Source: Microbacterium pumilum (GTDB taxonomy: Bacteria; Actinomycetota; Actinomycetes; Actinomycetales; Microbacteriaceae). From it: a stretch of 64,000 bases of DNA. The notes beneath the pieces are model-generated. The model saw only the letters and a list, made by a program, of their open reading frames with translations. It made no database searches and was not told the origin of the DNA. Position numbers and translations under genes: made by a program. Shown piece by piece: positions 30,146 through 63,145 of the stretch (its first letter is position 1; the number at the start of each line of letters is the position of its first letter). The stretch spans positions 1,488,001-1,552,000 of the forward strand of contig NZ_BAAAOH010000001.1 of NCBI RefSeq assembly GCF_039530225.1. The letters are read 5' to 3'.

Positions 30146-31447
30146 ATGCTTCTCGAGCGAGACCTCATCCAGTCCGTCGGCTTCCGCAATGTCCGAGAGG
30201 GCGATCAGATCACGGGCTTTCAGCTTCGCGTGCGGATGCCGTCGTACCGCGGGATGACGGCATCCCTCATCGACGGCATCGCCGTCCGCGTCGGCGACCT
30301 CGTCGACGTCGCGGCAGACGTTCCGCTGTGGACCTTCCTGGGCGCGACCTACACGCTCGTGGAGCTGTGGGAGAGCGACGGCGTCCGCTGGCCCCTCGAA
30401 GAGGCCGCGATCGTCACGGTCCCGTTCGAGGGCGGATTGCCCGACGGGGTACACGAGGTGTCGATAGAGCTGCGACTGCGGATGTCGTACATCCCGGTCG
30501 AGCACCAGCCGTCGACGTACAAGGTCACCAAGCACGTGACGCTCTCGCCCGAGGGCGACGGCGCACCCTTCAAGTACGGAGTCTCGCTCTACAGCTTCAT
30601 GGGCGACTACGGCACGGTGCTCGACCTCGAAACCGCGCTCGCCGGCATCGCCGACCTCGGTGCGACGGGCGTCGAGATCCTCGGCGAGGGACACATCCCG
30701 AACTACCCGGATCCGTCGGAGGAGTGGGTGGACGACTGGTTCCGGCTGCTCGACACCTACGGGCTCGAGCCCACGAACTACGGCTCCTGGATCGACACCC
30801 GGCTGCACTCCAGCGGCGACAACGGTCGCGACATGACCGTCGAGGAGGGCGCCGCCGCGCTGCAGCGCGACCTTCGGCTCGCCAAGCGGCTGGGCTTCCG
30901 GTTCGTGCGCCCCAAGATCGGCGTCGTGTCGAGCGACCTGATCCCGCATCCGATCTGGACCGAGGTCGTCGAGCAGAGCCTTCCGCTCGCCGAAGAGCTC
31001 GACGTCATCATCTGCCCCGAGATCCACGCGCCGACGCCGATCAAGCACGAGGTCGTCGACGAGTACATCGAGTTCATCCGGCGCACCGGAACCAAGCACT
31101 TCGGGCTGCTGATCGACACGGGCATCTTCCAGGACCGGCCGATCCCGCTCAAGCCCGGTGAGCTCCCCGGCCGCCGCCCGGCGTTCATGGACGGCATCGC
31201 GGTCGACCCGGCCGACTTCGCGGATGTCGCCGAGCACGTCGTGTTCGTCCAGGCGAAGTTCCACGACATCGACGAGAACCTCGAAGACCAGCAGATCCCG
31301 TGGGAACCGGTGCTGCGGGCGATCAGGGATGCCGGCTACACGGGATATCTCTCCAGCGAGTACGAGGGCGAGCGCGAGCCCTGGCGCTCGATCGAGCAGG
31401 TCCGCCGTCATCACTCGCTGATGCGCCAGGTCGCCGACGCGCTCTGA
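30146..31447 (+). CDS. C-deglycosidase beta-alpha fusion protein 1
   Basis: 433 aa. Residues 1-130 form a DUF6379-like domain (the small beta subunit of C-glycoside deglycosidases): NVREGDQITGFQLRVRMPSY and LRLRMSYIPVEHQPSTYKVT. Residues 145-433 are a sugar isomerase/epimerase TIM barrel (the alpha subunit), starting KYGVSLYSFMGDYG. The expected Glu-x-His is kept (CPEIHAPTP; Glu292, His294), as is SSEYEGE near the end, but the metal-binding HVHAKF strand of its relatives reads FVQAKF (Gln369). In characterised systems separate alpha and beta chains cut the C-C bond of 3-oxo-C-glycosides. Fusion makes a fixed 1:1 complex. First gene of a seven-gene operon. Confidence 0.8.
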   Translation: MLLERDLIQSVGFRNVREGDQITGFQLRVRMPSYRGMTASLIDGIAVRVGDLVDVAADVPLWTFLGATYTLVELWESDGVRWPLEEAAIVTVPFEGGLPDGVHEVSIELRLRMSYIPVEHQPSTYKVTKHVTLSPEGDGAPFKYGVSLYSFMGDYGTVLDLETALAGIADLGATGVEILGEGHIPNYPDPSEEWVDDWFRLLDTYGLEPTNYGSWIDTRLHSSGDNGRDMTVEEGAAALQRDLRLAKRLGFRFVRPKIGVVSSDLIPHPIWTEVVEQSLPLAEELDVIICPEIHAPTPIKHEVVDEYIEFIRRTGTKHFGLLIDTGIFQDRPIPLKPGELPGRRPAFMDGIAVDPADFADVAEHVVFVQAKFHDIDENLEDQQIPWEPVLRAIRDAGYTGYLSSEYEGEREPWRSIEQVRRHHSLMRQVADAL

Positions 31448-31487
31448 GCCGCGGCATCCGATCTCCACCGACGAAAGAAGCGACACC

Positions 31488-32963
31488 ATGCCCAACGGAC
31501 TCATCGCCGACGACAGCCTGCGCGTCCACCCGGAGGGCCTCGCGCTCTCGCTGACGATCCCCTGGTACCGCAGCCTCTGGCTGTCGTCGGTCGGCACACT
31601 GCAGGTGTCCATCGACGGCGAGCCCGCGGATGCCGCCGATCTCGCATTCGAGCTGGCGGGAGCGCGCTACGTCCTTGACGACCTGCCGGATCAGAGCGAC
31701 GTGCTCTGGTACCTGCAGGAGCACCCGCTGCTGATCGTGAAGCGCGACATCCCCGTCACCCTCGGCGAGAGCCACGAGGTCGAGATCTTCGGTCAGCTGC
31801 GGCTGCCCTACATGCAGATCGCGCCGGGACAGGACGGCGGGCCGGGCATGTACGTGCCGAACGTCGTCCGCCAGACGCTGACCTTGACCGCGACGGATCG
31901 GGATGCCGCGCCCCCGGCGCTCGTCTCGGACATCGCGCCGGTGCCGCCGGCGACGGACGGCGACCCGTTCAAGCTCGGTCTGACTCTGTACTCCGCGAGT
32001 GCGGAGTTCCGTGCCGGCTGGTACGACTTCGACGGACTGCTCGACCGGGTCGCCGAACTCGGCATCGGACCGGGGATTGAGATCGTGGCATCCCAGATGG
32101 TGCCGACCTACCCGGTGGTGTCGGACGAGTTCGTGCGCACCTGGCGCGCCGCGTTCGACAAGCACGGGTTCGACGAGAGCTCGTTCGGCGCGAACCTCGA
32201 CATGGGCAGGCGCCGCGACCGCGACATGACCCCGGATGAGGAGTTCGAGTTCAGCGAGCTGATGTTCCAGGGGGCGAAGAAGCTCGGCTTCCCGCTCGTG
32301 CGCATCCAGTCGGCCAAGCCCGATCTGCTCCGCCGCCTGCTGCCGGTCGCCGAGAAGCTCGACCTCACGCTCGCCTATGAGATCCACGCCCCGATGGGAC
32401 CGAACACCGAGGCGATCCTGAAGGTGCGCGACACGTACGCCGAGCTCGACTCGCCGCTGCTCGGATTCGTCGCCGACTTCTCCGCGACGATGCACGCCAT
32501 GTCGCCGACGCTGCTTCGCGCCGTTCAGCGGGCGGGGCTCGATGAGGAAGCGCTCGCCAGGATGCAGGAGATCTGGGCGACGGATGCTTCCATGCAGGAG
32601 CGGCAGCAGGAGTTCATCGGCTACCTGAAGAGCCGCGACTTCGATCCGGGCCGGCTGGGCTCGTTCGCGCACCTGGCGTTCAACATGCACGGCCACATCG
32701 ACCCGCGTGAGTGGGGCGACATCATGCCGCAGATCAAGCACGTGCACGCCAAGTTCTACGACATCGACGAGACCGGCCAGGAGCCGGCGATCGACTACCC
32801 CGAGCTGGTGCGCGTCTTCGTCGAGGGCGGCTACCGCGGGTACTGGTCGAGCGAGTGGGAGGGTCACGCCTTTGCCGAGCTCGGCGAGGTCGACCCGCTG
32901 GTGCTCGTGCGCAAGCAGCACGATCTGATCCGTCGGTCGATGAGGGAGCTGCAGCCGGCATGA
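31488..32963 (+). CDS. C-deglycosidase beta-alpha fusion protein 2
   Basis: 491 aa, ATG 40 nt after fusion 1. The beta domain (1-145) shows SLTIPWYRSLWLSSVGTLQV and LRLPYMQIAPGQDGGPGMYV; the alpha TIM barrel (165-491) shows LGLTLYSASAEF, NLDMGRRRDRDMTPDEE, AYEIHAPMGP (Glu298, His300), FVADFSATMH, HVHAKFYDI and SSEWEGHAF, the complete ligand set expected for a metal-dependent C-deglycosidase. It closely parallels the separate proteins encoded at 53183 (alpha) and 55051 (beta), so it is in effect those two joined. Likely role: beta-elimination of a 3-oxo-C-glycoside. Confidence 0.82.
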   Translation: MPNGLIADDSLRVHPEGLALSLTIPWYRSLWLSSVGTLQVSIDGEPADAADLAFELAGARYVLDDLPDQSDVLWYLQEHPLLIVKRDIPVTLGESHEVEIFGQLRLPYMQIAPGQDGGPGMYVPNVVRQTLTLTATDRDAAPPALVSDIAPVPPATDGDPFKLGLTLYSASAEFRAGWYDFDGLLDRVAELGIGPGIEIVASQMVPTYPVVSDEFVRTWRAAFDKHGFDESSFGANLDMGRRRDRDMTPDEEFEFSELMFQGAKKLGFPLVRIQSAKPDLLRRLLPVAEKLDLTLAYEIHAPMGPNTEAILKVRDTYAELDSPLLGFVADFSATMHAMSPTLLRAVQRAGLDEEALARMQEIWATDASMQERQQEFIGYLKSRDFDPGRLGSFAHLAFNMHGHIDPREWGDIMPQIKHVHAKFYDIDETGQEPAIDYPELVRVFVEGGYRGYWSSEWEGHAFAELGEVDPLVLVRKQHDLIRRSMRELQPA

Positions 32964-32990
32964 CGCCGGCCGGCGGTCCCCGCACCGTCC

Positions 32991-33064: not shown

Positions 33065-33132
33065 TGACAAAGGGGCGGGGTCGACCACAGAGACGGATGC
33101 CCGGCAGCGGCGCGAAAAAGGAGAATCAGCGC

Positions 33133-34086
33133 ATGACCGATACCGAGTTCGACATCCGATCGCTGCCGTTCCCCGATGCACTGCGTTGGTTGCGAGAAAA
33201 CGGCGAACCGGCGGATCCGCGCACCGACATCGACACCGCGTCGCTGCGTCGCCGGTTCCCTCGGCTTGCGAGCGTGACCACGACCGACCTTGAAGTCGAC
33301 AGTCCTCACGGGCCACAGCCTGCTCGGCTATACCGTGATGCCTCGGCTCCGGCATCCGGCCGTGGGCTGGTGTGGGTGCACGGTGGCGCCTTCATCGGCG
33401 GCTACCTCGACATGCCCGAGTCGAACTGGGTGGCCCTCGAGCTCGCTGCGCGCGGCATCCCGGTCTTCGCCGTCGACTACACGAAGTGCCTCGGCGACGT
33501 GCACTTCCCGGTGCCATCCGACGACGTGCTGGCCGCCTGGGATCATGCGCGATCGAACGCGCAGGAGCTGCTCGGCGTCACGCCCGACGGACTCGTGCTC
33601 GGCGGCGCGAGTGCGGGGGGGACGCTGACGGCCGGCGCGATCGCCAGGCTGCGGGATGCCGGACGAGACGTCCCGGCGGGAATTGTCAGCGTCTACCCGG
33701 CCGCGCACCCTGACGGCGGGCACCCGGGCGAGATTCCGGATCCGGCATCGCCGATGACGCAGATCGCCCTCAACTACGCAGGATCGGCGGAGTTGCTTGC
33801 CGATCCTCACGTCTTCCCCGGACTCGGATCGGGTGAGGGCTTCCCGCCGACCCTCGTGGTCGTGTGCGAACTCGACGGACTTCGACCGTCGGGCGAGGCA
33901 TTCGCCGCCCTGCTCGCCGACGCCGGCGTGGACGTGGCTGTGCACTTCGAGCCCGGGGCCGATCACGCGCACATCAATGAGCCGGCCGATCCGACAGCGC
34001 TGCCGACGATCGAGGCGATCGCCGACTGGATCGGCGGTCGGGCGCGATTCCCGGCGCTGGCGGAGAGCGAATCAGGAGCGACATGA
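33133..34086 (+). CDS. Alpha/beta hydrolase (HSL-type esterase)
   Basis: 317 aa from ATG 33133 behind AAAAGGAGAA. Hormone-sensitive-lipase-type features are GLVWVHGGAFIGGYLD (oxyanion HGGA), LVLGGASAGGTLTAGAIARL (nucleophile Ser in GxSxG), VVCELDGLRPSGEAF (Asp) and GADHAHINEPADP (His). It is a cytoplasmic carboxyl-ester hydrolase with no signal peptide. In this operon it may remove acyl groups such as acetyl, malonyl or coumaroyl from plant glycosides before cleavage; that is inference. Its stop overlaps the next start in ATGA. Confidence 0.85.
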   Translation: MTDTEFDIRSLPFPDALRWLRENGEPADPRTDIDTASLRRRFPRLASVTTTDLEVDSPHGPQPARLYRDASAPASGRGLVWVHGGAFIGGYLDMPESNWVALELAARGIPVFAVDYTKCLGDVHFPVPSDDVLAAWDHARSNAQELLGVTPDGLVLGGASAGGTLTAGAIARLRDAGRDVPAGIVSVYPAAHPDGGHPGEIPDPASPMTQIALNYAGSAELLADPHVFPGLGSGEGFPPTLVVVCELDGLRPSGEAFAALLADAGVDVAVHFEPGADHAHINEPADPTALPTIEAIADWIGGRARFPALAESESGAT

Positions 34087-35291
34087 AGCAGTACACCGCT
34101 GAACTCGTCCGCGCGAGTCTGCGCGGAGCGGTCGATGTCGAGGTCAGCCCGACGGGCCTGACCCCGTTGCGATTGCCGCCCCGCGCCACGGCGCAGTCCG
34201 GCTCCGACTGGATGCGGATCGCCGCGGAGCAGGCGTCCGGTGTGCGCTGCGAGTTCTGGACTGCGGCCACGTGGATCGAGCTCACGGTCGAGACGACCGG
34301 TCTGTATCTGCCCTGGGTTCCCGACCAGGTGCGATGGGCGGTGTTCTCTGCGACGGTCGACGGCGGGCCGGTCGACGATGCCCGCGTGACCGGTGGATCG
34401 GAGCTGCATCTCGCTGAGCCCGGGGGACCGCGTTTCGTCAAGGGCGAGCCCGCCGTCGTGCGGTTCGAGCTCGGGGGCGCGGGATTCGAGGAACGACGGG
34501 TTGTGGTGTGGCTTCCGCAGAGCGACACCGTCGAGATCCGCGATGTGCGCGCCGACGCGCCCGTGACGCCCGCCGAGCCCCTCGACCAGCTGCGCTGGTG
34601 GCATCACGGCAGCTCGATCAGTCACTGCATCGAGGCGGCGACACCGCGTGGTGTGTGGCCGGTCGCTGCGGCCGACCAGCTGGGTCTCGATGTCACGAAT
34701 CTCGGTTTCGCCGCGAACGCCCATCTGGATCCATTCACGGCACGGACGATGCGCGATTCGGGTGCAGACCTGTTCAGCCTGAAGATCGGCATCAACATCG
34801 TCGGTGGCGACACCATGAAGCAGCGCACGTTCATACCGGCCGTGCATGGCTTCCTCGACACCCTCCGTGACGGCGCGCCGTCCACGCCGATCCTGGTGAT
34901 CTCGCCGATCCTCTGCCCGATGCACGAGGACACGCCGGGCCCCACCATCACCGACCCGGTCACGGGGGAGCGTCGAGGAACACAGAGCACGACGCCGGAC
35001 TTCTTCGAACCGCCGCTCACCCTGCGCTCCGTGCGGGAGATTCTGCGGGACGTCGTCCACACGCGGGCCGCGGATGATCCCGCGATCTTCTACCTGGACG
35101 GACTGGATCTGTTCGGCGCGGACGACATCGCCGAACTTCCCGATGGGCTGCATCCCAGCCCGGCGGGATACCTGCGCATTGCGGAACGGTTCGCCGGGTC
35201 CTCCATCGTGACCAGGTGGATGGCGCAGGCGGCCGAACGGGTGGGTTCGATGCCGGTCGGCAACGGCCGGGGGGTCGGTGTGTTCCCGTGA
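34083..35291 (+). CDS. SGNH/GDSL hydrolase with N-terminal beta-sandwich domain
   Basis: 402 aa. Residues 1-165 look like a beta-rich carbohydrate-binding or jelly-roll domain. The SGNH part begins with RWWHHGSSISHCIEAATP (block I Ser in GSS), has LGFAANAHLDP (block II/III) and LKIGINIVGGD, and ends with DGLHPSPAGYLRIAERF (block V Asp and His). No signal peptide. The layout resembles two-domain acetyl-xylan-esterase-like enzymes, so it likely removes acyl groups from carbohydrate. It is coupled by 4-nt overlaps with both neighbours. Confidence 0.82.
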   Translation: MKQYTAELVRASLRGAVDVEVSPTGLTPLRLPPRATAQSGSDWMRIAAEQASGVRCEFWTAATWIELTVETTGLYLPWVPDQVRWAVFSATVDGGPVDDARVTGGSELHLAEPGGPRFVKGEPAVVRFELGGAGFEERRVVVWLPQSDTVEIRDVRADAPVTPAEPLDQLRWWHHGSSISHCIEAATPRGVWPVAAADQLGLDVTNLGFAANAHLDPFTARTMRDSGADLFSLKIGINIVGGDTMKQRTFIPAVHGFLDTLRDGAPSTPILVISPILCPMHEDTPGPTITDPVTGERRGTQSTTPDFFEPPLTLRSVREILRDVVHTRAADDPAIFYLDGLDLFGADDIAELPDGLHPSPAGYLRIAERFAGSSIVTRWMAQAAERVGSMPVGNGRGVGVFP

Positions 35292-36787
35292 CCGCGTCCG
35301 GCATGACGTTCGTCAACCCGATCCTCCCCGGCGATCGGCCGGACCCGGCGATCATCAAGGTCGGCGACGAGTACTGGCTGACCTACTCGTCCTTCGAGGC
35401 TGCCCCCGGACTCCTGCTGTACCGCTCGAGTGACCTCATCAACTGGACGTACGAGTGCGCCGCCTTGCCCGAACCCATCGGCAGCACTTTCGCTGTCGAC
35501 ATCGCCGAGCACGAAGGTCGCTTCTACATCTACATCCCGTTCATCCCGACGCCGTGGTCGACCCTGACGGATGCCTCGATCTTCGTCATCCACGCGCCCT
35601 CGATGAGCGGCCCATGGTCGGCGCCGATCGATCTGGGCATCCGCGGAGCGATCGACCCCGGGCACGTCGTGGGTGAGGACGGCCGCCGCTACCTCTTCGT
35701 GAACGGCGTGCGCAGCATCCGCCTGTCTGCCGACGGACTCTCGACCGTCGGGGAGCTCGAGCACGTCTACGACGGCTGGCGCTACCCCGACGAGTGGGTA
35801 ACTGAGGCCTACGCCCTCGAAGGGCCGAAGCTCCTCCGCAAGGACGACTGGTTCTACCTTGTGAGCGCCGTCGGCGGAACCGCGGGTCCGCCGACCGGGC
35901 ACATGGTGATCGTCGCGCGCTCGCGGTCGGTTCATGGCCCGTGGGAGAACCACCCGCGCAACCCGATCGCGCGGACGACGGATGCGGGTGATCGCTGGTG
36001 GTCGCGGGGTCACGCGACGCTTGTGCCGGGGACCGGGGAGACGCACGACTGGTGGATGATCTCGCACGGCTATGAGAACGGCTACCGCACCCTCGGCCGG
36101 CAGATCCTGCTGGAGCCGCTCCGGTGGACGGATGACGGGTGGCCCGAACTGGCGGTGGACGATCCGGGCGGAGTGCTCCAGGCTCCCGTCGGCGCGATGG
36201 TGCAGCATCCGTCCCCCGATGTCCACGATGACTTCTCGACCCTGGTCCCGGGCGAGCGGTGGGCCTTCCACGCGCCCGATCCCGGCGAGGCGGATCGTCT
36301 GAGTCTCGATGGCGGGCTGCAGATGGCCGGCAAGGGCACCTCGCCGGCCGATACCTCGCCGCTGGCGATGCTCGCCGGCGACCACTCCTATGAGGTCGAA
36401 GTCGACGTGGCCATCGAGCCGGACGGAGGCGAAGCCGGCCTGCTGCTCTTCTTCAACAATCGGCTCTTCTGCGGCTTGGGCATCGACGGCGAGCGGATGC
36501 TGAGCTATTCGGGCGGCATGAGAACCCACTGGCGCGAACCGGCGCCGGTGACCGACCGGATCATGCTGCGCATCCGCAACGACGAGCACATCGTGACGGC
36601 CTGGTACCGCGTTCCCGGCGGCGAGTGGATCCGTCACACTGTGCGGTACGAGACATCCGGCTACCACGCCAACACGATGGGTGACCTGCTCAGTCTGCGA
36701 CCGGCGCTGTATGCGACAGGCGCCGGCAGCGCTCTGTTCCGCGATTTCCGTTACCAAGCGCTCCCCCCGAGAGGATCACGATCATGA
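35288..36787 (+). CDS. GH43-like glycoside hydrolase with C-terminal beta-sandwich
   Basis: 499 aa, GTG start overlapping the previous TGA. A five-bladed propeller with the GH43-type acidic set: FVNPILPGDRPDPAIIKVGD (Asp base), GAIDPGHVVGEDGRRYLF (Asp) and EAYALEGPKLLRKDDWFYL (Glu acid). After residue 320 a second beta-sandwich domain follows (DDFSTLVPGERWAFHAPDPG onward), as in family members with a C-terminal GH43 module. The enzyme would release a pentose or other non-reducing sugar. Absence of a signal peptide means it works inside the cell on imported glycosides. Confidence 0.83.
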   Translation: MTASGMTFVNPILPGDRPDPAIIKVGDEYWLTYSSFEAAPGLLLYRSSDLINWTYECAALPEPIGSTFAVDIAEHEGRFYIYIPFIPTPWSTLTDASIFVIHAPSMSGPWSAPIDLGIRGAIDPGHVVGEDGRRYLFVNGVRSIRLSADGLSTVGELEHVYDGWRYPDEWVTEAYALEGPKLLRKDDWFYLVSAVGGTAGPPTGHMVIVARSRSVHGPWENHPRNPIARTTDAGDRWWSRGHATLVPGTGETHDWWMISHGYENGYRTLGRQILLEPLRWTDDGWPELAVDDPGGVLQAPVGAMVQHPSPDVHDDFSTLVPGERWAFHAPDPGEADRLSLDGGLQMAGKGTSPADTSPLAMLAGDHSYEVEVDVAIEPDGGEAGLLLFFNNRLFCGLGIDGERMLSYSGGMRTHWREPAPVTDRIMLRIRNDEHIVTAWYRVPGGEWIRHTVRYETSGYHANTMGDLLSLRPALYATGAGSALFRDFRYQALPPRGSRS

Positions 36788-39045: not shown

Positions 39046-39217
39046 GGTCGAGAGCGTAGGGCGCCGGTTGCGTGGCGGGCAAGGGGGCTTCGCTCGCCGC
39101 CGGGGTGGTGCTGGCCGTTCGGGTGATGTGGCCGTTGCGCGACAGGTGTAGCATGCGGCTGTTCGCCGCGCGCGGCGTCATGCGTCGAGGACCCGTGGCG
39201 AGATCGGGGGATTCGAA

Positions 39218-43528: not shown

Positions 43529-43624
43529 TTCGACCCTTTCGTGACTTCGTTGTCGCCAGCATTTCGGGAAGCTGGCTCGGCCGCTGGCCGCACGATCAGC
43601 CTGGCACACATCTGCCGGTTTCCG

Positions 43625-51666: not shown

Positions 51667-52062
51667 GTGATCCCCGATCGCATCATCGAGCAGGGCACGC
51701 TCACGACCGACGGTGCCCGCACCGCGGTGGAGGTACGTCTGCCCTGGTACCGGGCGCTCCCCGGGTCGTGCATCGCCGGCGCGAAGCTCAGCATCGACGG
51801 CGTCGAGGCGCCGACCGAGTCGCTGCGCTGGAGGATGAACGACCGTGAGTTCAGCTTCGGCGAGCTGGTCGACGAGACCGGCGAGTGGTGGTTCCCCACC
51901 GACTCAGCCGTCCTGTCGGGCGATATCCCGGTTGCGGATGACGCCGACCACGAGGTGCGGGTCGATCTCACGCTCTACATCCCGTACATCATCATCTCCG
52001 ACACCGAGACGCTCCATATCGAGGAGCACGACGTCAAGACCATGAAGGCGGTCGCAGCATGA
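51667..52062 (+). CDS. C-deglycosidase beta-subunit (DUF6379-like)
   Basis: 131 aa from the GTG at 51667, five nt after AGGAGG. Beta-sandwich pattern of the small subunit: AVEVRLPWYRALPGSCIAG, then EVRVDLTLYIPYIIISDTET, comparable to the N-terminal halves of the three fused proteins of this island. Its stop overlaps the ATG of the alpha gene at 52059, so the two chains are probably made together and form a complex. The subunit is thought to shape the active site of the alpha barrel, not to hold the metal. Confidence 0.82.
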   Translation: MIPDRIIEQGTLTTDGARTAVEVRLPWYRALPGSCIAGAKLSIDGVEAPTESLRWRMNDREFSFGELVDETGEWWFPTDSAVLSGDIPVADDADHEVRVDLTLYIPYIIISDTETLHIEEHDVKTMKAVAA

Positions 52063-55050: not shown

Positions 55051-55467
55051 ATGGCCACCCACAATTCCCTCTTCTCCGACAAGGACGTTCACCGTCGCGA
55101 CGACGCGATCGCCGTCTCGGTGCAGCTTCCCTGGTACCGCAGCCTTTGGCTGTCGGCCGTCGACGATGTCGCGGCATCCGTCAACGGCGTCGCCGTGCCG
55201 AAGGAGGAGCTGCGTTTCGAGCTCAACGGCACGAGCTACCGCATCGAAGAGCTGCCCGATCAGTGGGACACGCTCTGGTTCGTCGCCGACAAGCCCGAGG
55301 TCGTCATCCCACTCGACCACGCTCCCGAGGCGGGCGAGAAGCTGACCGTCGAGGTCGTGCTGACGATGCGCCTGCTCTACATGCAGATCATGCCGGGCAC
55401 CGACGGCGGCCCCGGTCGCTATGTCACCAACCGCGTACCGGTCGAGCGCGAGGTCGTGCTGGCATGA
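55051..55467 (+). CDS. C-deglycosidase beta-subunit (DUF6379-like), second copy
   Basis: 138 aa, ATG behind GAGGAGCC. It carries AVSVQLPWYRSLWLSAVDDV and LTMRLLYMQIMPGTDGGPGR, nearly the same pattern as residues 20-130 of the fused protein encoded at 31488 (LSLTIPWYRSLWLSSV, GQLRLPYMQIAPGQDGGPG). This indicates that it pairs with the alpha chain encoded at 53183, although the two genes are separated by the SnoaL-like gene. Stop overlaps the next start (ATGA). Confidence 0.84.
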   Translation: MATHNSLFSDKDVHRRDDAIAVSVQLPWYRSLWLSAVDDVAASVNGVAVPKEELRFELNGTSYRIEELPDQWDTLWFVADKPEVVIPLDHAPEAGEKLTVEVVLTMRLLYMQIMPGTDGGPGRYVTNRVPVEREVVLA

Positions 55468-56749: not shown

Positions 56750-56770
56750 ACCTGACAAAGGAGACACACA

Positions 56771-57772
56771 ATGGCGCGCCCGATCACCCTGTTCACCGGC
56801 CAGTGGGCCGACCTGCCGTTCGAAGAAGTCGCCCGCCTCGCCGGCGAGTGGGGCTACGACGGCCTCGAGATCGCCTGCTGGGGCGATCACCTCGATGTGT
56901 CTCGGTGGGATGACGCCGAGTACGTCCAGAGCCGGCTCGACATCCTCGAGCGCCACGGCTTGAAGGTCTATGCGATCTCGAACCACCTGACCGGCCAGGC
57001 GGTCTGCGACGACCCGATCGACGAGCGCCACCGCGACATCCTCTCGGATCGTGTCTGGGGCGACGGCGACCCGGAGGGCGTGCGCCAGCGCGCCGCGGAA
57101 GACCTCAAGAACACGGCACGCATCGCGGCGAAGCTCGGCGTGACGACAGTGAACGGATTCTCCGGATCATCGATCTGGAAAGCGGTGGCGATGTTCCCGC
57201 CGGCGTCCGACGAGTTCATCGCGCACGGCTACCAGGACTTCGCCGACCGATTCAACCCCATCCTCGACGTGTTCGAAGAGGTCGGCGTGCGCTTCGCGCT
57301 CGAAGTGCACCCGTCCGAGATCGCCTACGACTACTGGACCGCGAAGGACACGCTCGAGGCGATCGGCCACCGCAAGAGCTTCGGCTTCAACTTCGACCCG
57401 TCGCACTTCGTCTGGCAGCAGCTGGACTACCTGGCGTTCGTGCTCGACTTCGCCGAGCACATTTTCCACGTGCACGTGAAGGAGTCCATCACGAATCTCG
57501 ACGGTCGCAACGGTGTGCTCGGCTCGCACCGGCCCTGGGCCGACCCTCGCCGCGGGTGGACCTTCGTCTCGACCGGTCACGGCGCGGTGCGGTGGGAGCC
57601 GCTCTTCCGCGCGCTCAACGCGATCGGCTACGACGGACCGACGAGCGTCGAGTGGGAGGACGCCGGAATGGACCGGCTCATCGGCGCTCCCGAGGCGCTC
57701 GCGTTCGTGCGCAGGCTCGCGGAGATCACACCGCCCGCTGCGGCGTTCGACGCCGCGTTCTCGACGAAGTAG
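56771..57772 (+). CDS. Sugar phosphate isomerase/epimerase-family TIM-barrel protein
   Basis: 333 aa, ATG behind AAAGGAGA. Barrel features: [51 protein letters not shown] (Glu), [14 protein letters not shown] (Asp, His), IFHVHVKE (His) and TSVEWEDAG (Glu), a full divalent-metal set. The group is frequently paired with Gfo/Idh/MocA and ThuA-type genes in 3-keto-sugar pathways, as here (55464, 59801, 60861). It is less similar to the C-deglycosidase alpha chains than those are to one another, so epimerisation or hydration of a keto-sugar is more likely than C-C cleavage. Confidence 0.83.
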
Positions 57773-57831
57773 GCGCCTCTTCGAAGTCGACGCCGTCGGC
57801 TCACCCGCTCACCACGAAAGCAGGCACGACC

Positions 57832-58803
57832 ATGACGAGCCCGACCACCGAGCCGCCGAAGATCAAGTGGAGCTACATGGACCACTGGCGCAGCCAGGGT
57901 CCGGCGGGCCCCATCGACCAGTGGCAGTCCCGGCTCGCGATGACGCGGTTCCTGCGCCAGGTGGCCGCCGTCGGCTTCGACGCGATCGACACCTTCGACT
58001 TCCGGTTCTGGCAGATCCTCGAACAGTACGGATCGGTCGCGAACTATCAGGAGTTCGTGCAGGAGCAGGGCCTCGAGCGCATCGTGAACACGTTCCACGG
58101 CGTGTACTACACCCCCGACCGCTACGCGCCGGAGGTGCCGGCGACCCACGACACGATCCTCGAGGACTTCAGGGTCACGATGGACCGGTGGTCCGGCATC
58201 CAGCTCGACAACATCATCGTCATGCCCGGTTCGCGATTCTTCGACGAGGTCGGTGTCAGTGACGACGGGCTCAAGCACGCGGCGGAAGTCTGGGGCAAGG
58301 TCGGCCAGATCACCCAGGAGTACGGCGTCAATCTGACGTGCCACCACGAGTTCTACGGTGGCATCCGCACGCGCGCGCAGATCGACGCGTTCTACGACTA
58401 TGCCGATCCCGAGTTCGTGAAGTTCTTCGTCGACACCGCCCAGCACTGCATCGCGGATGTCGATCCGGTCGACGTGTACGAGGCGCACCACGATCGCGTG
58501 ACGGGCTTCCATTTCAAGGACACGCGGACGAAGGACGTCAACGAGGACTACCGGCTCTGGCCCGATGCCGAGCTCTCGGCCGTGACGACAGAGAAGTGGT
58601 TCTACGAGATGGGCACCGCCGAAGGCCTGGTCGACTTCGAGTCGTTCATGCGGTCGGTGCGCGACCACGGCTACACGGGCTGGATCAGCGTCGAACACGA
58701 CAAGGCCGACAAGGTGGGTGGCGACTACTCGGAGAGCACGGCGATCGCGCGGTGGTACGCGAAGAACGTGCTCGACGGCATCTACGAGGAGGTCGCGAAG
58801 TGA
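57832..58803 (+). CDS. Sugar phosphate isomerase/epimerase-family TIM-barrel protein
   Basis: 323 aa. The start ATG is at 57832; the first 15 residues are Pro/Thr-rich. Barrel marks are GFDAIDTFDFRFWQILEQYG, LTCHHEFYGGIRTRAQ (Glu), KFFVDTAQHCIADVD (Asp, His), GFHFKDTRTKDVNEDY and WISVEHDKADK (Glu, His). It is coupled to the next gene by a GTGA overlap. The unusual HHEFYGG and FKDTRTK stretches set it apart from the other barrels in this run, implying another substrate. Function in the island is inferred only. Confidence 0.8.
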   Translation: MTSPTTEPPKIKWSYMDHWRSQGPAGPIDQWQSRLAMTRFLRQVAAVGFDAIDTFDFRFWQILEQYGSVANYQEFVQEQGLERIVNTFHGVYYTPDRYAPEVPATHDTILEDFRVTMDRWSGIQLDNIIVMPGSRFFDEVGVSDDGLKHAAEVWGKVGQITQEYGVNLTCHHEFYGGIRTRAQIDAFYDYADPEFVKFFVDTAQHCIADVDPVDVYEAHHDRVTGFHFKDTRTKDVNEDYRLWPDAELSAVTTEKWFYEMGTAEGLVDFESFMRSVRDHGYTGWISVEHDKADKVGGDYSESTAIARWYAKNVLDGIYEEVAK

Positions 58804-59801
58804 CCGGCGTCCGATGGGGCTATGCCCTGAACCAGTGGGACACCAACATCGACGCGTTCGTGCGCAAGCGCGATCACGAGCGGGCGTTCAAGACGATCTC
58901 GATCAGCGGGTTCAGCGGCGTCGAGCTGACGGCCGTCAGCTTCGGACCATGGGAGCCGTTCGGCAGCCCCCATGAGATCGCGAACCTGTACGGATCTCTG
59001 GATGGCCTGCGATCCTTCCTCTCCGAGTGCGCGCTCGACGCCGTGAGCAGTTACGTGTACGACCCGTTCGTCGGGTTCGACGTCGAGATGGGCCGCGGAC
59101 CTGACCCTCTCGATCCGGGTGCGGTCGAGCAGATCACCGGCACCGCCCTCTGGTTCGCCGAGGCGGTGCACCGTCTCGGCGGTGACACGCTCGTCGTGCG
59201 TCCGGTCGGCTCGGCATGGCAGACGGGCGAACTGAGCGATGACCAGGTCGGCACGCTCGCCCGCCTCTGGAACGAGGTGGGCCGCCGTATCGCGGAGCAT
59301 GACGTACGGCTCGCACTCCACGTCGACTTCCTGTCGGCCCTGCGCCTGGGCGACGGAATCGACAGACTTCTTGCCGCAACCGCACCCGAGTTCGTCGGCC
59401 TCGCCCTCGACACCGCCGAACTCGCAGTCGCGGGTATCGACCCCGTCGAGTTCTTCCGGAGCCACGCCGACCGGGTCCGGCACATCCAGCTCAAGAACGC
59501 CCGCGAGCTCGTCGACGACGCCGAAGCGCTCACGCCCCATGCGGAGCAGTTCGTCCGCACCGAAGGCGGCGCGCGACGCATCGAGCGCTGGTTCTTCGAG
59601 CCGACCGACGAAGGCGGCCTGATCGACTTCGAAGCCTTCGCGCGCGCTGTGGCCGACTCGGACTATTCCGGGTGGATCGTGGTCGAGTCCGACCAGAGTC
59701 CGCGCCCCGCCGAGAGCGCGATGGTCAGCGGATGGTACGTCCAGAAGGTGCTGGAGCCCATCATCGCGCGTTCCCGCCATGCGTTGGGCGCTCCCCGGTG
59801 A
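58800..59801 (+). CDS. Sugar phosphate isomerase/epimerase-family TIM-barrel protein
   Basis: 333 aa, GTG start overlapping the previous TGA. It shows WGYALNQWDTNIDAFVRK, FSGVELTAVSFGPW, VRLALHVDFLSALRLG (the usual Glu ligand appears as Asp), LALDTAELAVAG, RHIQLKNARE (His) and WIVVESDQSP (Glu). The change of one acidic ligand and the short loops suggest a modified metal site. It is followed by a Gfo/Idh gene whose ATG overlaps its stop (TGATG). Probably works on a keto-sugar intermediate. Confidence 0.8.
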   Translation: MTGVRWGYALNQWDTNIDAFVRKRDHERAFKTISISGFSGVELTAVSFGPWEPFGSPHEIANLYGSLDGLRSFLSECALDAVSSYVYDPFVGFDVEMGRGPDPLDPGAVEQITGTALWFAEAVHRLGGDTLVVRPVGSAWQTGELSDDQVGTLARLWNEVGRRIAEHDVRLALHVDFLSALRLGDGIDRLLAATAPEFVGLALDTAELAVAGIDPVEFFRSHADRVRHIQLKNARELVDDAEALTPHAEQFVRTEGGARRIERWFFEPTDEGGLIDFEAFARAVADSDYSGWIVVESDQSPRPAESAMVSGWYVQKVLEPIIARSRHALGAPR

Positions 59802-60823
59802 TGGCCCGGGCCGGTCAGGATGAGGCGATGACCGCGCCGAGCCTGGGAATCGGAATCATGGGTGCTGCCGGCATCGCCGAGCGGGCGATCGTGGAGCCGG
59901 CGCGCGAGCTGGACGGCGTCCGAGTGATCGCCATCGGCGCACGCGATCCAGATCGGGCGCGGGCGCTGGCCGATCGCCTCGAGGTGCCCGAGTCGGGCGA
60001 CTACGAGATGCTCCTGAACCATCCCGACGTCGACCTCGTCTACATTCCGCTGCCCTCGACCGTTCAGGCCTACTGGGCGGTGCGGGCGCTGCGGGCCGGC
60101 AAGCACGTGCTGTGCGAGAAGCCGCTGTCGGCGAACGGGACGACCGCGGCGCAGATCGCCGAGGCGGCGGACGCGGCGGGCAGGCGTGCTTTCGTGGGAT
60201 TCCACTACCGACTGCACGGCTTCACCCGTCGGCTGCTGGGCGTGCTCGCCTCAGGGGTCCTGGGGCAGATCCAGCGCGTCGAGTTCGACTACAGCATCCC
60301 TCACTTCGTCGTGAAGCCCGGCAACATCCGCCTCGACGGAGATCTCGGCGGCGGGTCGTTCATGGACGTCGGGTGCTACGCCGTGGACCTCATCCGTGCC
60401 GCGTGGGGGGAGCCGTTGGTCGTCTCGGCCGAAGCAGTGCTGTCGGGCGACGACCCGCGTGTGGACCTGCAGACGGATGCGGTGCTCGAGCTCTCGGGCG
60501 GCATCCCGGTTCATGTGCGCTCGTCCTTCATCGGCGACGACAAGGGAAGCATGTCGCTGCGGGTCGAGGGGTCCGCGGCCTCGCTCGTGGCCACCAGCGT
60601 GATCGTGCCCCAATGGGGCGCCGTGCTGACGGTCACCGCCGGCGATGACGTGCTCGTCGAGGAGAGGGCGGTCGAGGGCGAGAACAGCTACGTGCGCCAG
60701 CTCGAGCACGTGATCGGGGCCCTGCGCGACGGCACGCCCAGTGAATTGGACGCAGCGCTCGGCGTCGGCACGATGGAAGTCGTCGACGCCGTCTACCGCG
60801 CCGCTGGTCTACAGCCCCGCTGA
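59801..60823 (+). CDS. Gfo/Idh/MocA-family oxidoreductase
   Basis: 340 aa from ATG 59801 (TGATG overlap); ATG 59828, after GGATGAGG, is also likely. The Rossmann part is GIGIMGAAGIAERAIVEPAR with the motif HVLCEKPLSANGTTAAQIAE. The substrate domain has GGGSFMDVGCYAVDLIRAAW (conserved Asp and Tyr). It is of the group with dimeric dihydrodiol/glucose-fructose-oxidoreductase-like members. Last gene of the long plus-strand run. It may reduce or oxidise C3 of the sugar released from C-glycosides. It is clearly different from the Gfo/Idh protein encoded at 55464. Confidence 0.85.
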   Translation: MARAGQDEAMTAPSLGIGIMGAAGIAERAIVEPARELDGVRVIAIGARDPDRARALADRLEVPESGDYEMLLNHPDVDLVYIPLPSTVQAYWAVRALRAGKHVLCEKPLSANGTTAAQIAEAADAAGRRAFVGFHYRLHGFTRRLLGVLASGVLGQIQRVEFDYSIPHFVVKPGNIRLDGDLGGGSFMDVGCYAVDLIRAAWGEPLVVSAEAVLSGDDPRVDLQTDAVLELSGGIPVHVRSSFIGDDKGSMSLRVEGSAASLVATSVIVPQWGAVLTVTAGDDVLVEERAVEGENSYVRQLEHVIGALRDGTPSELDAALGVGTMEVVDAVYRAAGLQPR

Positions 60824-60834
60824 CGAACGACGGT

Positions 60835-60848
60835 GGCGGACATCCGCC
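60835..60848. terminator. Short hairpin between convergent operons
   Basis: GGCGGA-CA-TCCGCC, in the 37-nt gap between the convergent oxidoreductase and ThuA-like genes. Small loop and no T-run, so terminator function is tentative. Confidence 0.35.
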
Positions 60849-60860
60849 CTGGTGGCGGGG

Positions 60861-61730
60861 TCAGCCCTCGTGGTTGTAGTACGGCCACGGGAGGAACCGG
60901 CGCTCGCCGCGGCGGTCGGGGCCCTCGAGGGTCACCTCGCCGGTCGCGGCCCACTCGACGCCCCGAGGGAACATGCGGATGAACTCGATGCGCCGGAAGG
61001 TGTCGATGTCATGTCCGATCGTGATCGTGAAGGAACGGCCCGCGCCATACTCGTTGATCCAGGCGATCGGCTGGTCGGTGTTCATGCCGTTGAGAGCGGC
61101 GATGCCGCCCTCGGGGATCACGACGGGATAGTGCGACATCGGCCACACCGGCGCGTTCTCATACGCCTCGAGGTCGTCGAACGTCGTGAGCAGCTCCTGT
61201 GCGCCCTCGTACAGCTGCACCCCGGTGAGGATGTCGTCGCCCGTCACGGTCCACGTCGCGTTGATGCCTTCGGTGATCGGATGCCGCGGCTCGGTGGTCT
61301 TGAGAAGAGCCTCACCCCAGGGCCGGGGCCGCAGCCCCGTCTCGTACGCGCTCAGCTTCGCGCCGCGCATCACGTTGTACTCCTCCGGGTACCCCCACGA
61401 GTCCTCCTGCACCGCCGACCCGTGGAACCACACGATGCCCTTGCCGTCGTCGTGCACGAAGCGCAGCAGCGCGGCATCCGTCTCGGCGCCGAACCCGACG
61501 GCCTTGTCGTGGTAGCCATCGCGGCCCTCGAAGACGACGATCACGACGTCGTACCTGTCGATGATCTCCGCGCCGAGGCCGCGCGGGTCCTCCACGACCC
61601 GCACTGTGAACCGCCCGGTGTCTTCCAGCAGGGTCGTGAGCCACTGGTTGTGCTGGCGGAAGCTGCGATGCTCGTTGTCGTGCTCGATCGTCATGTGTCC
61701 CGAGAGGATGAGGACGTTCAACAGCGTCAT
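60861..61730 (-). CDS. ThuA-like domain protein
   Basis: 289 aa from ATG 61730, overlapping the upstream stop (ATGA). The class-I glutamine-amidotransferase-like ThuA fold shows NVLILSGHMTIEHDNEHRSF, YDVVIVVFEGRDGYHDKAVG, LLRFVHDDGKGIVWFHGSAV and the late PIAWINEYGAGRSFTITIGH. ThuA proteins are linked to 3-keto-disaccharide breakdown beside ThuB (Gfo/Idh). Here it follows a beta-alpha fusion gene and faces a Gfo/Idh gene, so a role with 3-oxo-sugars is reasonable. Its biochemical activity is not settled even in characterised systems. Confidence 0.83.
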   Translation of the reverse strand: MTLLNVLILSGHMTIEHDNEHRSFRQHNQWLTTLLEDTGRFTVRVVEDPRGLGAEIIDRYDVVIVVFEGRDGYHDKAVGFGAETDAALLRFVHDDGKGIVWFHGSAVQEDSWGYPEEYNVMRGAKLSAYETGLRPRPWGEALLKTTEPRHPITEGINATWTVTGDDILTGVQLYEGAQELLTTFDDLEAYENAPVWPMSHYPVVIPEGGIAALNGMNTDQPIAWINEYGAGRSFTITIGHDIDTFRRIEFIRMFPRGVEWAATGEVTLEGPDRRGERRFLPWPYYNHEG

Positions 61731-63145
61731 GCGTTCGCTCCGCTCAGTGCCCGGCGGGCCAGCGCGAGGTGGTCTCGGGTCATGCTCGTCGGGTCGTCGT
61801 CGAGCCATTCGTGCCCGCCCCACTCGCTGCACAGCGTTCCGCTGAACCCTGTTCCATCCAGGAGCGCCGCGACATCGCGGATCGGACCGCTCACGCGGTC
61901 GTCGGAGTCGTCGAGATCCCAGAACTTCAGGTGGAACGCGCCGATCCAGGGCAGCACGTCGGCAATCGCCGTCGCCTCCGATCGGCCGAATCTGACCAGC
62001 ATGTCCATGTACAGCGTGTGGACGGATGCCGGCACTCCGCCGGATCGCAGCAGATCGACGATCGCGCCCACGATCTCGGGATCGCGCCAGCGGTGCCGCA
62101 GGGTCTCGATGAGGTCCGCGGGCACTCCGCCGTCCTGCAGGCGTGCGAGATAGCTCTCGGGAACGGCGGGCATGAACATCGAGATGTCCACGAGGAGGCG
62201 CACGTGCGGGTCGTCGAACTCGACGATCCGATCGATCGCGGGACCGGCCTGAGGCGAGCCGGGAATCTGCGAACCCTGGATCTCCTCGAACAGCGTCAGA
62301 CCCGTCTCGTGCAGGACGGGCAGCACGCGCTCGAGCAGCGGGGGGCCGGCCTGCCCGATGGGCAGGCGCAGGCCGCGCGCGCCGAGCTGATGGGCGATCT
62401 CGATCTGCGGCAGGAGGAATGCGAGCCGCTCGCCGTCCGTGCGGCGAGTGCCCTGCGGCGACCAGTCATCCATGCTCGCGCCCAGGATGCTGACGCGTCC
62501 GCCCGCTGCGGCCAGGCGCGCACCGAATGCCGCGGCATCCGCCTCGCTTCGCCCGGGGAACGATCGCCACAGCTGTCCCGGCTCCGCTTCGATCTCGACC
62601 GCCAGGCCGTCTTCGACGATGCCGACGGCGATGTCGACGGCATCACGGTCGCCCGCGATCATGTCCGGTGTCCAGTTGAAGGCGCTCGCGGTGAGCACCC
62701 AGCCCGCGGGAAGCGAACCGTCGCTCGTCGTCGGCGCGGCATCCCTCGTCACCGCGGCCGGCACGTGCGGCGCGTCGGGCACGAGCGACCGCTCGGCGCG
62801 GAACGGCAGGGTGAGCGGGCCGTCCGGCCCTACCTGCAGGTAGGGGATCCGCAGCCCGAACTCGACCGCGACGTCGTGGGTTCCGAGGTTCACCCGGTGC
62901 GGCCACGCGAGTGTGATGCGATCCTGCTGGAACCACCAGCCGTCTTCCTCGCCGAGCTCACCAGGCGCCACGGGCCTGCCGTCGAGCAGCACCGCGACGT
63001 CCTCGGCGAGGACGCCGTCGATCGTCACTGACGGGTCCTGCAGAGAGGTCATGGGCAGGGACCTGATCCACGGCAGGGAGACGCGCACGGCGGCCCCGTC
63101 CGGCGTGGTGATGAGGGAATCGTCGCGCAGCAACGGCAGCGTCAT
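61727..63145 (-). CDS. C-deglycosidase-like beta-alpha fusion protein 3, diverged active site
   Basis: 472 aa from ATG 63145 behind GAGGA. N-terminal DUF6379-like domain: AVRVSLPWIRSLPMTSLQDP and VAVEFGLRIPYLQVGPDGPL; then a TIM barrel from about residue 150. Compared with the other alpha domains, the Glu-x-His motif is changed to LFEEIQGSQIPG (Glu288, Gln290), the Asp region is LLVDISMFMPA, and HVHAKF is GAFHLKFWDL; CSEWGGHEW keeps the last Glu. Loss of the His expected to act as catalytic base suggests another reaction or a different substrate. It heads a two-gene operon with the ThuA-like gene, next to a ROK regulator gene. Confidence 0.75.
   Translation of the reverse strand: MTLPLLRDDSLITTPDGAAVRVSLPWIRSLPMTSLQDPSVTIDGVLAEDVAVLLDGRPVAPGELGEEDGWWFQQDRITLAWPHRVNLGTHDVAVEFGLRIPYLQVGPDGPLTLPFRAERSLVPDAPHVPAAVTRDAAPTTSDGSLPAGWVLTASAFNWTPDMIAGDRDAVDIAVGIVEDGLAVEIEAEPGQLWRSFPGRSEADAAAFGARLAAAGGRVSILGASMDDWSPQGTRRTDGERLAFLLPQIEIAHQLGARGLRLPIGQAGPPLLERVLPVLHETGLTLFEEIQGSQIPGSPQAGPAIDRIVEFDDPHVRLLVDISMFMPAVPESYLARLQDGGVPADLIETLRHRWRDPEIVGAIVDLLRSGGVPASVHTLYMDMLVRFGRSEATAIADVLPWIGAFHLKFWDLDDSDDRVSGPIRDVAALLDGTGFSGTLCSEWGGHEWLDDDPTSMTRDHLALARRALSGANA

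What the first reader, a model, noticed from the sequence alone, without database searches (positions are those of the whole stretch)
30146..63145. A 33-kb C-glycoside catabolism island with five predicted C-deglycosidase alpha/beta sets
Seen directly: five TIM-barrel domains of one related type (at 30146, 31488, 52059, 53183, 61727) and five small beta-sandwich domains of the DUF6379 type (at 30146, 31488, 51667, 55051, 61727). Near them are a pyranose-oxidase-like flavoenzyme, two Gfo/Idh dehydrogenases, ThuA, four more isomerase barrels, esterases, GH106/GH3/GH43/GH35-type hydrolases and an importer. Established: the CarA/CarB/CarC (carminic acid) and DgpA-C (puerarin) systems oxidise C3 and then split the C-C bond with alpha/beta deglycosidases. 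Inference: this is an expanded version able to handle several C-glycosides or decorated flavonoid C-glycosides. So many sets in one locus appears unusual.
Basis: partly seen in the sequence, partly recalled or inferred. Interest (0 to 1): 0.9.

Follow-up and report, generated by a model that had tools for sequence, protein, structure and literature searches.

The report
Sugar-carbon bond-breaking island, one enzyme re-tooled
A soil actinobacterium carries a large, widely shared gene island for stripping sugars off plant compounds through carbon-carbon bonds; four of its five sugar-cleaving enzyme sets look standard, while the fifth belongs to a conserved branch that has kept its metal site but replaced residues known to help break the bond.

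Summary
In detail: five CGD-type TIM barrels and five DUF6379/CGDB-type beta domains lie at the stated places, with a CarA/PsG3Ox-type 3-oxidase, two Gfo/Idh, ThuA, four more barrels, hydrolases and an importer. C-glycoside catabolism is well supported: A4/B4 is the syntenic orthologue of the solved AgCGD2 pair, F1 that of the solved fused CGD 8QRZ. Five sets in one locus is common among carriers: 16 of 26 other carriers found in the family at least (20 fetched). And the fifth set (F5, 61727-63151) is no ordinary deglycosidase: its clade keeps five Mn ligands but has Gln for the catalytic His149, Gly for helper Glu307 and Ile for the beta Tyr (20/20, 20/20, 18/18; 115/116, 116/116, 116/116, own protein included), while 81 of 81 other alpha and 81 of 81 other beta domains keep them. 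F5 is under purifying selection, lies within about 3 kb of a ROK gene in 74 of 80 named loci, and has the CGD barrel fold. The island runs past the window into ring-cleavage genes. F5's reaction is open.

The parts
28980..29936 (-). LysR-type regulator
   Evidence: PF00126/PF03466; orthologue printed in 16 of the 20 fetched relatives
30146..31447 (+). Set F1: natural beta-alpha fused CGD, orthologue of the solved fused enzyme 8QRZ; Mn ligand His269 replaced by Gln in its clade
   Evidence: 8qrz 850 bits, named M. testaceum CGD; 21 of 21 with Q269, H149, E307
31488..32963 (+). Set F2: natural beta-alpha fused CGD with all catalytic residues
   Evidence: PF19906 48.6 bits; 7dnm_A 2.2e-130, 7dnm_B 6.2e-25; residues
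33064..34086 (+). alpha/beta-hydrolase esterase (PF07859)
34083..35291 (+). GDSL lipase/acylhydrolase
35216..36787 (+). GH43 glycosidase (true start probably downstream)
   Evidence: PF04616 256 bits
36784..38424 (+). GH42/GH35-like protein with DUF5597
   Evidence: PF18120 and PF02449
39973..42195 (-). GH3 glycosidase
42233..43609 (-). sugar-binding protein of the importer
   Evidence: PF13416/PF01547
43680..46934 (-). GH106 alpha-L-rhamnosidase
   Evidence: PF17132 717 bits
46829..48010 (+). ABC importer permease A (true start probably downstream)
   Evidence: PF00528
48012..48848 (+). ABC importer permease B
   Evidence: PF00528
49266..50060 (+). Bar1: hydroxypyruvate-isomerase-like barrel
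   Evidence: PF01261 134 bits; TIGR03234 below cut-off; printed in all 20 fetched relatives
50057..51592 (+). FAD C-glycoside 3-oxidase (CarA/PsG3Ox type)
   Evidence: 7dve 3e-281, 7qf8 3.3e-241
51667..52062 (+). Set 3 beta subunit (B3)
   Evidence: PF19906 45.1 bits; 7dnm_B 8.2e-11
52059..53186 (+). Set 3 alpha subunit (A3), catalytic residues kept
   Evidence: 7dnm_A 1.6e-57; 21 of 21 in its group with H149, E307
53183..54217 (+). Set 4 alpha subunit (A4), orthologue of AgCGD2 alpha
   Evidence: 7dnm_A 9.4e-188; the syntenic A. globiformis gene is identical to 7dnm_A over 338 residues
54210..55025 (+). SnoaL-like protein between A4 and B4, function unknown
   Evidence: PF13577; present in 42 of 80 F5 loci
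55051..55467 (+). Set 4 beta subunit (B4), orthologue of AgCGD2 beta with a 6-residue insertion near the aglycone loop
   Evidence: 7dnm_B 8.1e-60 and the gap in the alignment; pairing from L138
55464..56660 (+). Gfo/Idh dehydrogenase, levoglucosan-dehydrogenase-like: candidate 3-ketoglucose reductase
   Evidence: PF01408/PF22725; NF052479 356 bits, cut-off 650
56771..57772 (+). Bar2: barrel, weakly IolE-like
   Evidence: PF01261 143 bits; TIGR04379 32.6 bits; 60 of 80 F5 loci
57769..58803 (+). Bar3: IolE-like barrel, candidate hydratase of the 2-hydroxy-3-ketoglycal
   Evidence: TIGR04379 79.6 bits, below cut-off 290
58800..59801 (+). Bar4: IolE-like barrel
   Evidence: TIGR04379 91.2 bits, below cut-off 290
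59798..60823 (+). second Gfo/Idh dehydrogenase
60861..61832 (-). ThuA-family protein
   Evidence: PF06283 91.6 bits
61727..63151 (-). Set F5: fused beta-alpha CGD-fold protein with all five Mn ligands but His149->Gln, Glu307->Gly, beta Tyr->Ile
   Evidence: homology; residues; selection; fold
63229..63990 (-). ROK regulator, upstream of F5 on the same strand; the full gene (421 aa) runs past the window end
   Evidence: PF00480; ROK within the locus in 76 of 80 F5 loci, same strand in 74

Best explanation
This is the left and middle part of a conserved actinobacterial C-glycoside catabolic supercluster. Importer and outer hydrolases take in and trim decorated aryl C-glycosides; the FAD oxidase oxidises the sugar at C3; alpha/beta CGD sets F1, F2, A3/B3 and A4/B4 split the aryl-sugar bond by metal-assisted beta-elimination with a catalytic His; IolE-like barrels and Gfo/Idh enzymes hydrate and reduce the released 2-hydroxy-3-ketoglycal to glucose; a ring-cleavage operon just right of the window degrades an aromatic part. 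The fifth set, F5, is not a fifth ordinary deglycosidase: it belongs to a conserved CGD-derived clade that kept the metal site and the beta domain but replaced the catalytic base, its helper and the beta Tyr, so it most likely carries out another metal-dependent step on a keto-glycoside or keto-sugar. Shown here: homology, pairing of A4/B4, synteny, residue swaps, selection, predicted barrel fold. Inferred: substrates, order of steps, every reaction, and the function of F5.
For: Oxidase 7dve/7qf8; F1 = 8qrz orthologue; AgCGD2 alpha (338 residues) and beta (132 residues) are letter-identical to the A4 and B4 genes of A. globiformis NBRC 12137 at the syntenic place; His149, Glu307 and the beta Tyr kept in 81 of 81 non-F5 alpha and 81 of 81 non-F5 beta domains of window and relatives (ligand His269 is Gln in 21 of 21 of F1); on the tree F5 and A4 are each one side of a branch (SH-aLRT 100 and 95), F1, F2 and A3 too but for the distant rows of G232; the order oxidase, B3, A3, A4, B4, Gfo1 is kept in 18 of 20 fetched relatives, two of them with two barrels after the oxidase; Gfo1 levoglucosan-dehydrogenase-like and IolE-like barrels, below cut-offs; ring-cleavage genes at the right flank, extradiol dioxygenase in 49 and FAD monooxygenase in 53 of 80 F5 loci. 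F5 swaps; dN/dS 0.22-0.34. Mechanism: PMC8563793, sections 11, 12, 13 read (His to Ala leaves 10.4% in PuCGD and 1.8% in MiCGD, Glu to Ala 49.8% and 1.9%); PMC10628242, section 12 read (Tyr39 to Phe in PuCGE: minor, 2.4-fold loss with the 3-keto O-glucoside, over 99% loss with 3-keto C-glucosides).
Against: No biochemistry exists for these proteins. The single His and Glu mutants of PuCGD kept 10.4% and 49.8% activity, so F5 could still eliminate slowly or with another base. CGD-type enzymes also cleave 3-keto O-glucosides (PMC10628242), so the natural substrates may be mostly O-glycosides. Bar1-4 and Gfo matches are below curated cut-offs. The window's outer hydrolases are only partly shared by relatives. 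In two distant F5 loci (L181, L182) the beta position reads Tyr, possibly from a neighbouring beta domain, and in two it was not covered. G055 lacks F5, G321 and G026 lack F2, G232 lacks A4. None of four ring-cleavage markers was found within the 10 kb flanks of 10 of the 11 loci named Arthrobacter. The full-length match of the F5 model to the fused 8qrz has rmsd 17.4 over 385 residues, so the placing of the beta domain against the barrel is not confirmed.
Confidence: 0.8

Rival explanations
1. F5 is a keto-glycoside isomerase: with the His base gone, metal-bound Glu residues act as in 3-epimerases of the same fold and interconvert 2-keto and 3-keto C-glycosides, bringing off-path substrate back to the four deglycosidase sets.
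Against: No direct evidence; the likeness to epimerases holds for CGD barrels in general; the 2-oxo/3-oxo exchange is proposed to run without an enzyme in basic buffer.
Confidence: 0.3
2. F5 is a beta-eliminase for other 3-keto glycosides (O-linked, or with an acidic aglycone) that needs no His because the leaving group is good, with a new Arg in the aglycone pocket.
For: Changing the PuCGE beta Tyr mainly hurts C-, not O-glucoside cleavage (PMC10628242, section 12); F5 has Arg where AgCGD2 has aglycone-binding Asn248 in the alignment (116 of 116).
Against: The equivalent His is essential even in the O-glycoside eliminase AtOGE (H134A devoid of activity, PMC10628242, passage); the Asn248 column shifts between alignments (V, I, R or T).
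Confidence: 0.25
3. F5 has lost catalysis and is a ligand-binding partner of the ROK regulator beside it.
For: ROK within about 3 kb of F5 in 74 of 80 loci and on the same strand in 74; catalytic residues replaced; highest dN/dS of the genes compared in three of four relatives, in the fourth B4 is higher.
Against: Metal ligands kept in 116 of 116 (E305 in 115), unexpected for a protein that only binds.
Confidence: 0.15
4. One reading: five working C-deglycosidase sets for several C-glycosides.
For: Five alpha and five beta domains of one family; His to Ala mutants of PuCGD keep 10.4% activity (PMC8563793, section 12).
Against: Base His, helper Glu and beta Tyr all replaced together in the F5 clade.
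Confidence: 0.12
5. The locus mainly serves O-glycosides (rhamnosylated, acylated flavonoids) and C-glycoside cleavage is a side activity.
For: GH106, GH43, GH3 and esterases in the window; PuCGE accepts 3-keto O-glucosides (PMC10628242).
Against: The nearest tested relatives (AgCGD2, CarA, PsG3Ox) act on C-glycosides; 3-keto O-glycosides made by PurA lost their aglycone spontaneously (PMC12724307, passage).
Confidence: 0.17

Closest known systems
AgCGD2 (Arthrobacter globiformis NBRC 12137; PDB 7DNM/7DNN; Mori et al. 2021, PMC8563793)
   Same: A4/B4 are its syntenic orthologues (80% and 71% identity to the L138 genes, which are identical to the 7DNM chains)
   Different: Window B4 has six extra residues near the loop that Mori et al. 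link to C6/C8 preference; a SnoaL gene lies between alpha and beta. F5 alpha lies about 2.3 kb from the AgCGD2 beta gene in L138 but is not mentioned in the sections and passages read; AgCGD1, the other tested A. globiformis pair, was not located here, and its reported conserved Tyr17 argues that it is not F5 (Phe there)
Microbacterium testaceum fused C-glucosyl deglycosidase (PDB 8QRZ, 8UN2)
   Same: F1 is a full-length orthologue, beta-alpha fused (source organism and name)
   Different: Only one of five sets; its paper was not found in the library
PsG3Ox cluster of Pseudarthrobacter siccitolerans (PMC10646112, passages) and CarABC of Microbacterium sp. 5-2b
   Same: Oxidase with CGD genes beside it; the two B and two C genes of P. 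siccitolerans probably correspond to A3/B3 and A4/B4 (inferred from layout, sequences not compared)
   Different: F1, F2, F5, ROK and ring-cleavage genes are not in the passages read; strain 5-2b is reported to have no other PuCGD-like gene products than CarB and CarC
PuCGD/DgpBC and EuCGD/DfgAB of gut Firmicutes
   Same: Same alpha/beta fold and active site
   Different: Gfo/Idh-type DgpA oxidation, hetero-octamers (PMC8563793, passages); weaker sequence matches
AtOGE, O-glycoside beta-eliminase (PMC10628242, passages)
   Same: Mn site and 3-keto substrate logic; oxidation, elimination, hydration, reduction order
   Different: No beta subunit; catalytic His kept, unlike F5

Membership tests
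C-glycoside deglycosidase (sets F1, F2, A3/B3, A4/B4) | alpha TIM barrel homologous to solved CGD alpha chains | tested here: met
C-glycoside deglycosidase (sets F1, F2, A3/B3, A4/B4) | beta subunit or domain of the CGDB/DUF6379 family | tested here: met
   PF19906 over cut-off
C-glycoside deglycosidase (sets F2, A3/B3, A4/B4) | metal ligands E147, D179, H269, K271, E305 | tested here: met
   all five kept
C-glycoside deglycosidase (set F1) | metal ligands E147, D179, H269, K271, E305 | tested here: inconclusive
   four kept, Gln at 269 in 21 of 21; the solved 8qrz, deposited as a CGD, shows Gln there too in the alignment
C-glycoside deglycosidase (sets F1, F2, A3/B3, A4/B4) | base His149, helper Glu307, beta Tyr (PuCGE Tyr39) | tested here: met
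   81 of 81 alpha and 81 of 81 beta domains, window's own included
C-glycoside deglycosidase (sets F1, F2, A3/B3, A4/B4) | C-C cleavage of a 3-keto C-glycoside | not testable with these tools
   needs enzyme assay
C-glycoside deglycosidase (set F5) | homology and barrel fold | tested here: met
C-glycoside deglycosidase (set F5) | metal ligands | tested here: met
   80 of 80 loci; 116 of 116, E305 115 of 116
C-glycoside deglycosidase (set F5) | base His149, helper Glu307, beta Tyr | tested here: not met
   Q 115 of 116 (one G), G 116 of 116, I 116 of 116; 20/20, 20/20, 18/18
Actinobacterial C-glycoside 3-oxidase (CarA/PsG3Ox) | sequence family | tested here: met
   7dve 3e-281, 7qf8 3.3e-241 over nearly the full length
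Actinobacterial C-glycoside 3-oxidase (CarA/PsG3Ox) | C3 oxidation of C-glycosides | not testable with these tools
   needs enzyme assay

The most novel reading that the evidence does not exclude
F5 founds a distinct enzyme activity that arose inside the C-deglycosidase family: a metal-dependent keto-glycoside isomerase (2-keto to 3-keto) or another non-eliminating step, kept beside a ROK regulator in C-glycoside loci of Microbacteriaceae and Arthrobacter, including A. globiformis NBRC 12137, source of AgCGD2, and M. trichothecenolyticum DSM 8608.
Probability: 0.35. Interest if true: 0.75.

Novelty: new variant of a known kind. Interest (0 to 1): 0.6.

Why it matters
C-glycosides resist ordinary glycosidases, and in the papers I read, how soil bacteria use them as food is worked out for the first two steps in a few strains. 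The locus offers a nearly whole predicted route in one place, from import to ring cleavage, shared by many genera. The F5 clade gives a natural experiment on the CGD active site: same fold and metal site, with residues held to break the bond replaced together and kept that way. Finding what F5 does would test the accepted mechanism and may add a new step to the pathway.

Tried and rejected
Rejected: 'unusual number of sets'. Rejected: F5 as a decaying gene; dN/dS 0.22-0.34 against four relatives and kept metal ligands. Considered and not supported: a recent tandem expansion; the sets fall in separate groups each spanning genera. Considered: a mobile island. No tRNA gene in the window and GC runs from 65 to 72%, but distribution is patchy (2 of the 9 same-genus genomes listed carry PF19906, own included) and an Arthrobacter replicon of 1.0 Mb holds five matching places.

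Led nowhere: PDB codes 8QVC/8QRZ/8UN2/8UMC/8QVE in the paper library (6 unrelated papers); the paper of 8QRZ; no paper held 'C-glycoside', 'extradiol' and 'deglycosylation' together (0). Papers with 'DUF6379', 'PF19906', 'C-glycoside deglycosidase' or 'C-glycosyl deglycosylation': 4. That F5 is undescribed rests and on sections and passages only; subscription papers, among them Furlanetto et al. 2024 (seen only as a reference entry), and all supplements were not seen. In one search most listed papers were unrelated. Pfam gave nothing for many of the left-half ORFs tried, many of which are probably shadow ORFs.

Limits: one search scored 8000 candidates, 669 hits, 120 listed; 116 of 440-540 aa, the window's own protein (P0001) among them, were counted and 4 dropped by length. 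These are the nearest relatives (53% identity or more). The patterns contain the EWGG motif, so Gly at 307 is selected for; Gln at 149 is not. In one search, 20 of 26 other carrier genomes were fetched; the four single-copy carriers G045, G073, G171, G188 and also G292 and G364 were not, so 16 of 20 leans towards multi-copy genomes. In some searches, frames cut by a region end and hits not covering the part counted were dropped. One F5 row (G226) was left out of the tree; that tree was a 'quick' one and warned of long branches for the distant F5 rows and for G232. Loci reach at most 10 kb to each side, so counts are lower bounds; the FAD monooxygenase count includes two matches of only 32-35% identity (L181, L182).

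Full report
What is there. The window is G000:C1:1488001-1552000 of a 4.45 Mb single-contig genome; the nearest named relatives of F5 are from Microbacterium. Pfam finds PF19906 (CGDB) over its cut-off in four of five predicted beta domains, and the TIM-barrel family PF01261 in the barrels, below its cut-off only in F5. The beta domain at the start of F5 (61727-63151, minus strand) matches solved DUF6379 chains at about 1e-9, and its barrel matches AgCGD2 alpha at 4.6e-18. Own-genome searches put all sets found in the window: PF19906 gives four places, and a search with F2 gives eight matches, all in the five sets described here. The oxidase at 50057 matches 7dve and PsG3Ox (7qf8) over nearly its full length.

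Which sets are which. F1 (30146-31447) matches the solved fused enzyme 8qrz at 850 bits, which names as the M. testaceum C-glucosyl deglycosidase. A4 and B4 are the AgCGD2 pair: the letters of 7dnm chains A and B, as printed, are 100% identical to genes of A. globiformis NBRC 12137 (L138) in the A4 and B4 places, and window A4/B4 are 80% and 71% identical to those genes. A3/B3 and F2 form further groups. In P. siccitolerans two B and two C genes beside the oxidase had been noted (PMC10646112, passages), so this core is known.

Is it unusual? In 398 genomes of the family PF19906 is found in 27, own included, and 21 of the 27 have four or more matches, two have three and four have one. It is found in 5 of 396 genomes drawn from the phylum, own included, 3 of them over the cut-off, and in 0 of 14 control genomes. 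Of 20 fetched relatives (of 26 other carriers; the four single-copy ones were not fetched), 16 hold all five sets, counting split and diverged forms; G055 lacks F5, G321 and G026 lack F2 (in G026 F1 also lies apart), G232 lacks A4. The common order is F1, F2, LysR, binding protein, permeases, Bar1, oxidase, B3, A3, A4, (SnoaL), B4, Gfo, Bar2, ThuA, F5 and ROK, the last two on the other strand, with variations; oxidase, B3, A3, A4, B4, Gfo keep this order in 18 of 20. GH3, GH43, GH106 and esterases are shared by only some. On a tree of 101 alpha domains F5 and A4 are single groups, F1, F2 and A3 single but for distant G232 rows. So the array is old and common among carriers, not a private expansion.

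Where F5 sits. A ROK gene is in 76 of the 80 loci, on the same strand as F5 in 74, within 3 kb in 74, and with no other gene of the window's set between them in 67; two of the four loci without it begin at or near F5 (L106, L157). A4 is within 10 kb in 63 of 80. Among the loci are A. globiformis NBRC 12137 (L138, source of AgCGD2) and M. trichothecenolyticum DSM 8608 (L130). F5 is one reading frame in the window and in 5 of the 19 fetched relatives that have it (G028, G103, G304, G321, G360); in G226 it is read in two overlapping frames, in the rest as separate alpha and beta frames or, for the distant ones, with no clear partner. In Arthrobacter, Pseudarthrobacter, Naasia lichenicola and Pseudolysinimonas loci the F5 beta and alpha genes lie on opposite strands.

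Beyond the window. To the right come the full ROK gene, a Gfo/Idh, a gene without a family match, a catechol-2,3-dioxygenase-like extradiol enzyme (below that model's cut-off), FAA hydrolase, cyclase, FAD monooxygenase, amidohydrolase, a second FAA hydrolase and a second oxidase of the same family at 46% identity. Among the 80 F5 loci the Gfo is found in 66, the FAD monooxygenase in 53, the extradiol enzyme in 49, the cyclase in 48, the FAA hydrolases in 44 and 47, the amidohydrolase in 44. None of extradiol enzyme, FAD monooxygenase, first FAA hydrolase or amidohydrolase was found in 10 of the 11 loci named Arthrobacter, though F5 and ROK are there, so F5 belongs to the glycoside side rather than to ring cleavage (inference).

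Route proposed. Import and trimming; C3 oxidation; beta-elimination by four sets; hydration of 2-hydroxy-3-ketoglycal by IolE-like barrels (the reverse of an inosose-dehydratase-type step, from general knowledge; matches below cut-off); reduction by the levoglucosan-dehydrogenase-like Gfo/Idh; ring cleavage of the aglycone. The order oxidation, elimination, hydration, reduction is described for other systems in PMC10628242 (passages). All reactions here are inferred.

Verdict. Observation confirmed, interpretation partly supported. The known part is the C-glycoside cluster; the parts I did not find described are the conserved five-set array, its link to ring cleavage, and the CGD-fold clade F5 with a rebuilt catalytic site. 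Its reaction is open: isomerase 0.30, other eliminase 0.25, sensor 0.15, ordinary C-deglycosidase 0.12, something else the rest.

Noticed in passing
L192 4607-16290 (right flank, G000:C1:1548000-1567900; about window positions 64,606-76,289): Predicted aromatic ring-cleavage operon (extradiol dioxygenase, FAD monooxygenase, two FAA hydrolases, amidohydrolase, cyclase) and a second C-glycoside-oxidase-like GMC gene, outside the window.
   Followed up: partly
window 30146-31447 and relatives in L064-L103: The F1 clade has Gln in place of metal ligand His269 in 21 of 21 sequences, as does the solved 8qrz (alignment).
   Followed up: partly
L138, L135, L137, L174 near 9,500-11,000: F5 beta and alpha genes on opposite strands in Arthrobacter, Naasia, Pseudolysinimonas and Pseudarthrobacter loci, an odd layout for two parts of one enzyme.
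   Followed up: no
window 54210-55025: A SnoaL-like gene stands between the alpha and beta genes of the AgCGD2-type pair; present in 42 of 80 F5 loci, missing in others; function unknown.
   Followed up: no
L093 (G226:C1:2173805-2175228): F5 of this genome is read in two overlapping frames, perhaps a frameshift or sequencing error; described only.
   Followed up: no
NZ_AP024649.1 near 561187-562644 (Arthrobacter sp. StoSoilB13, 1.0 Mb replicon): Five places matching F2 on a record listed as a plasmid: the array can lie on a secondary replicon.
   Followed up: no
L106 and L107: Contigs labelled Stenotrophomonas maltophilia P13 and Planococcus sp. APC 4015 carry a Microbacterium-like locus; likely contamination or mislabelled assemblies.
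   Followed up: no
G364:C1 near both ends: Eleven PF19906 matches, several in identical pairs at the two contig ends; probably a duplicated assembly end.
   Followed up: no
window 39218-39952 and 38494-39126: A hemerythrin-domain protein and an ORF without a Pfam match lie inside the island.
   Followed up: no
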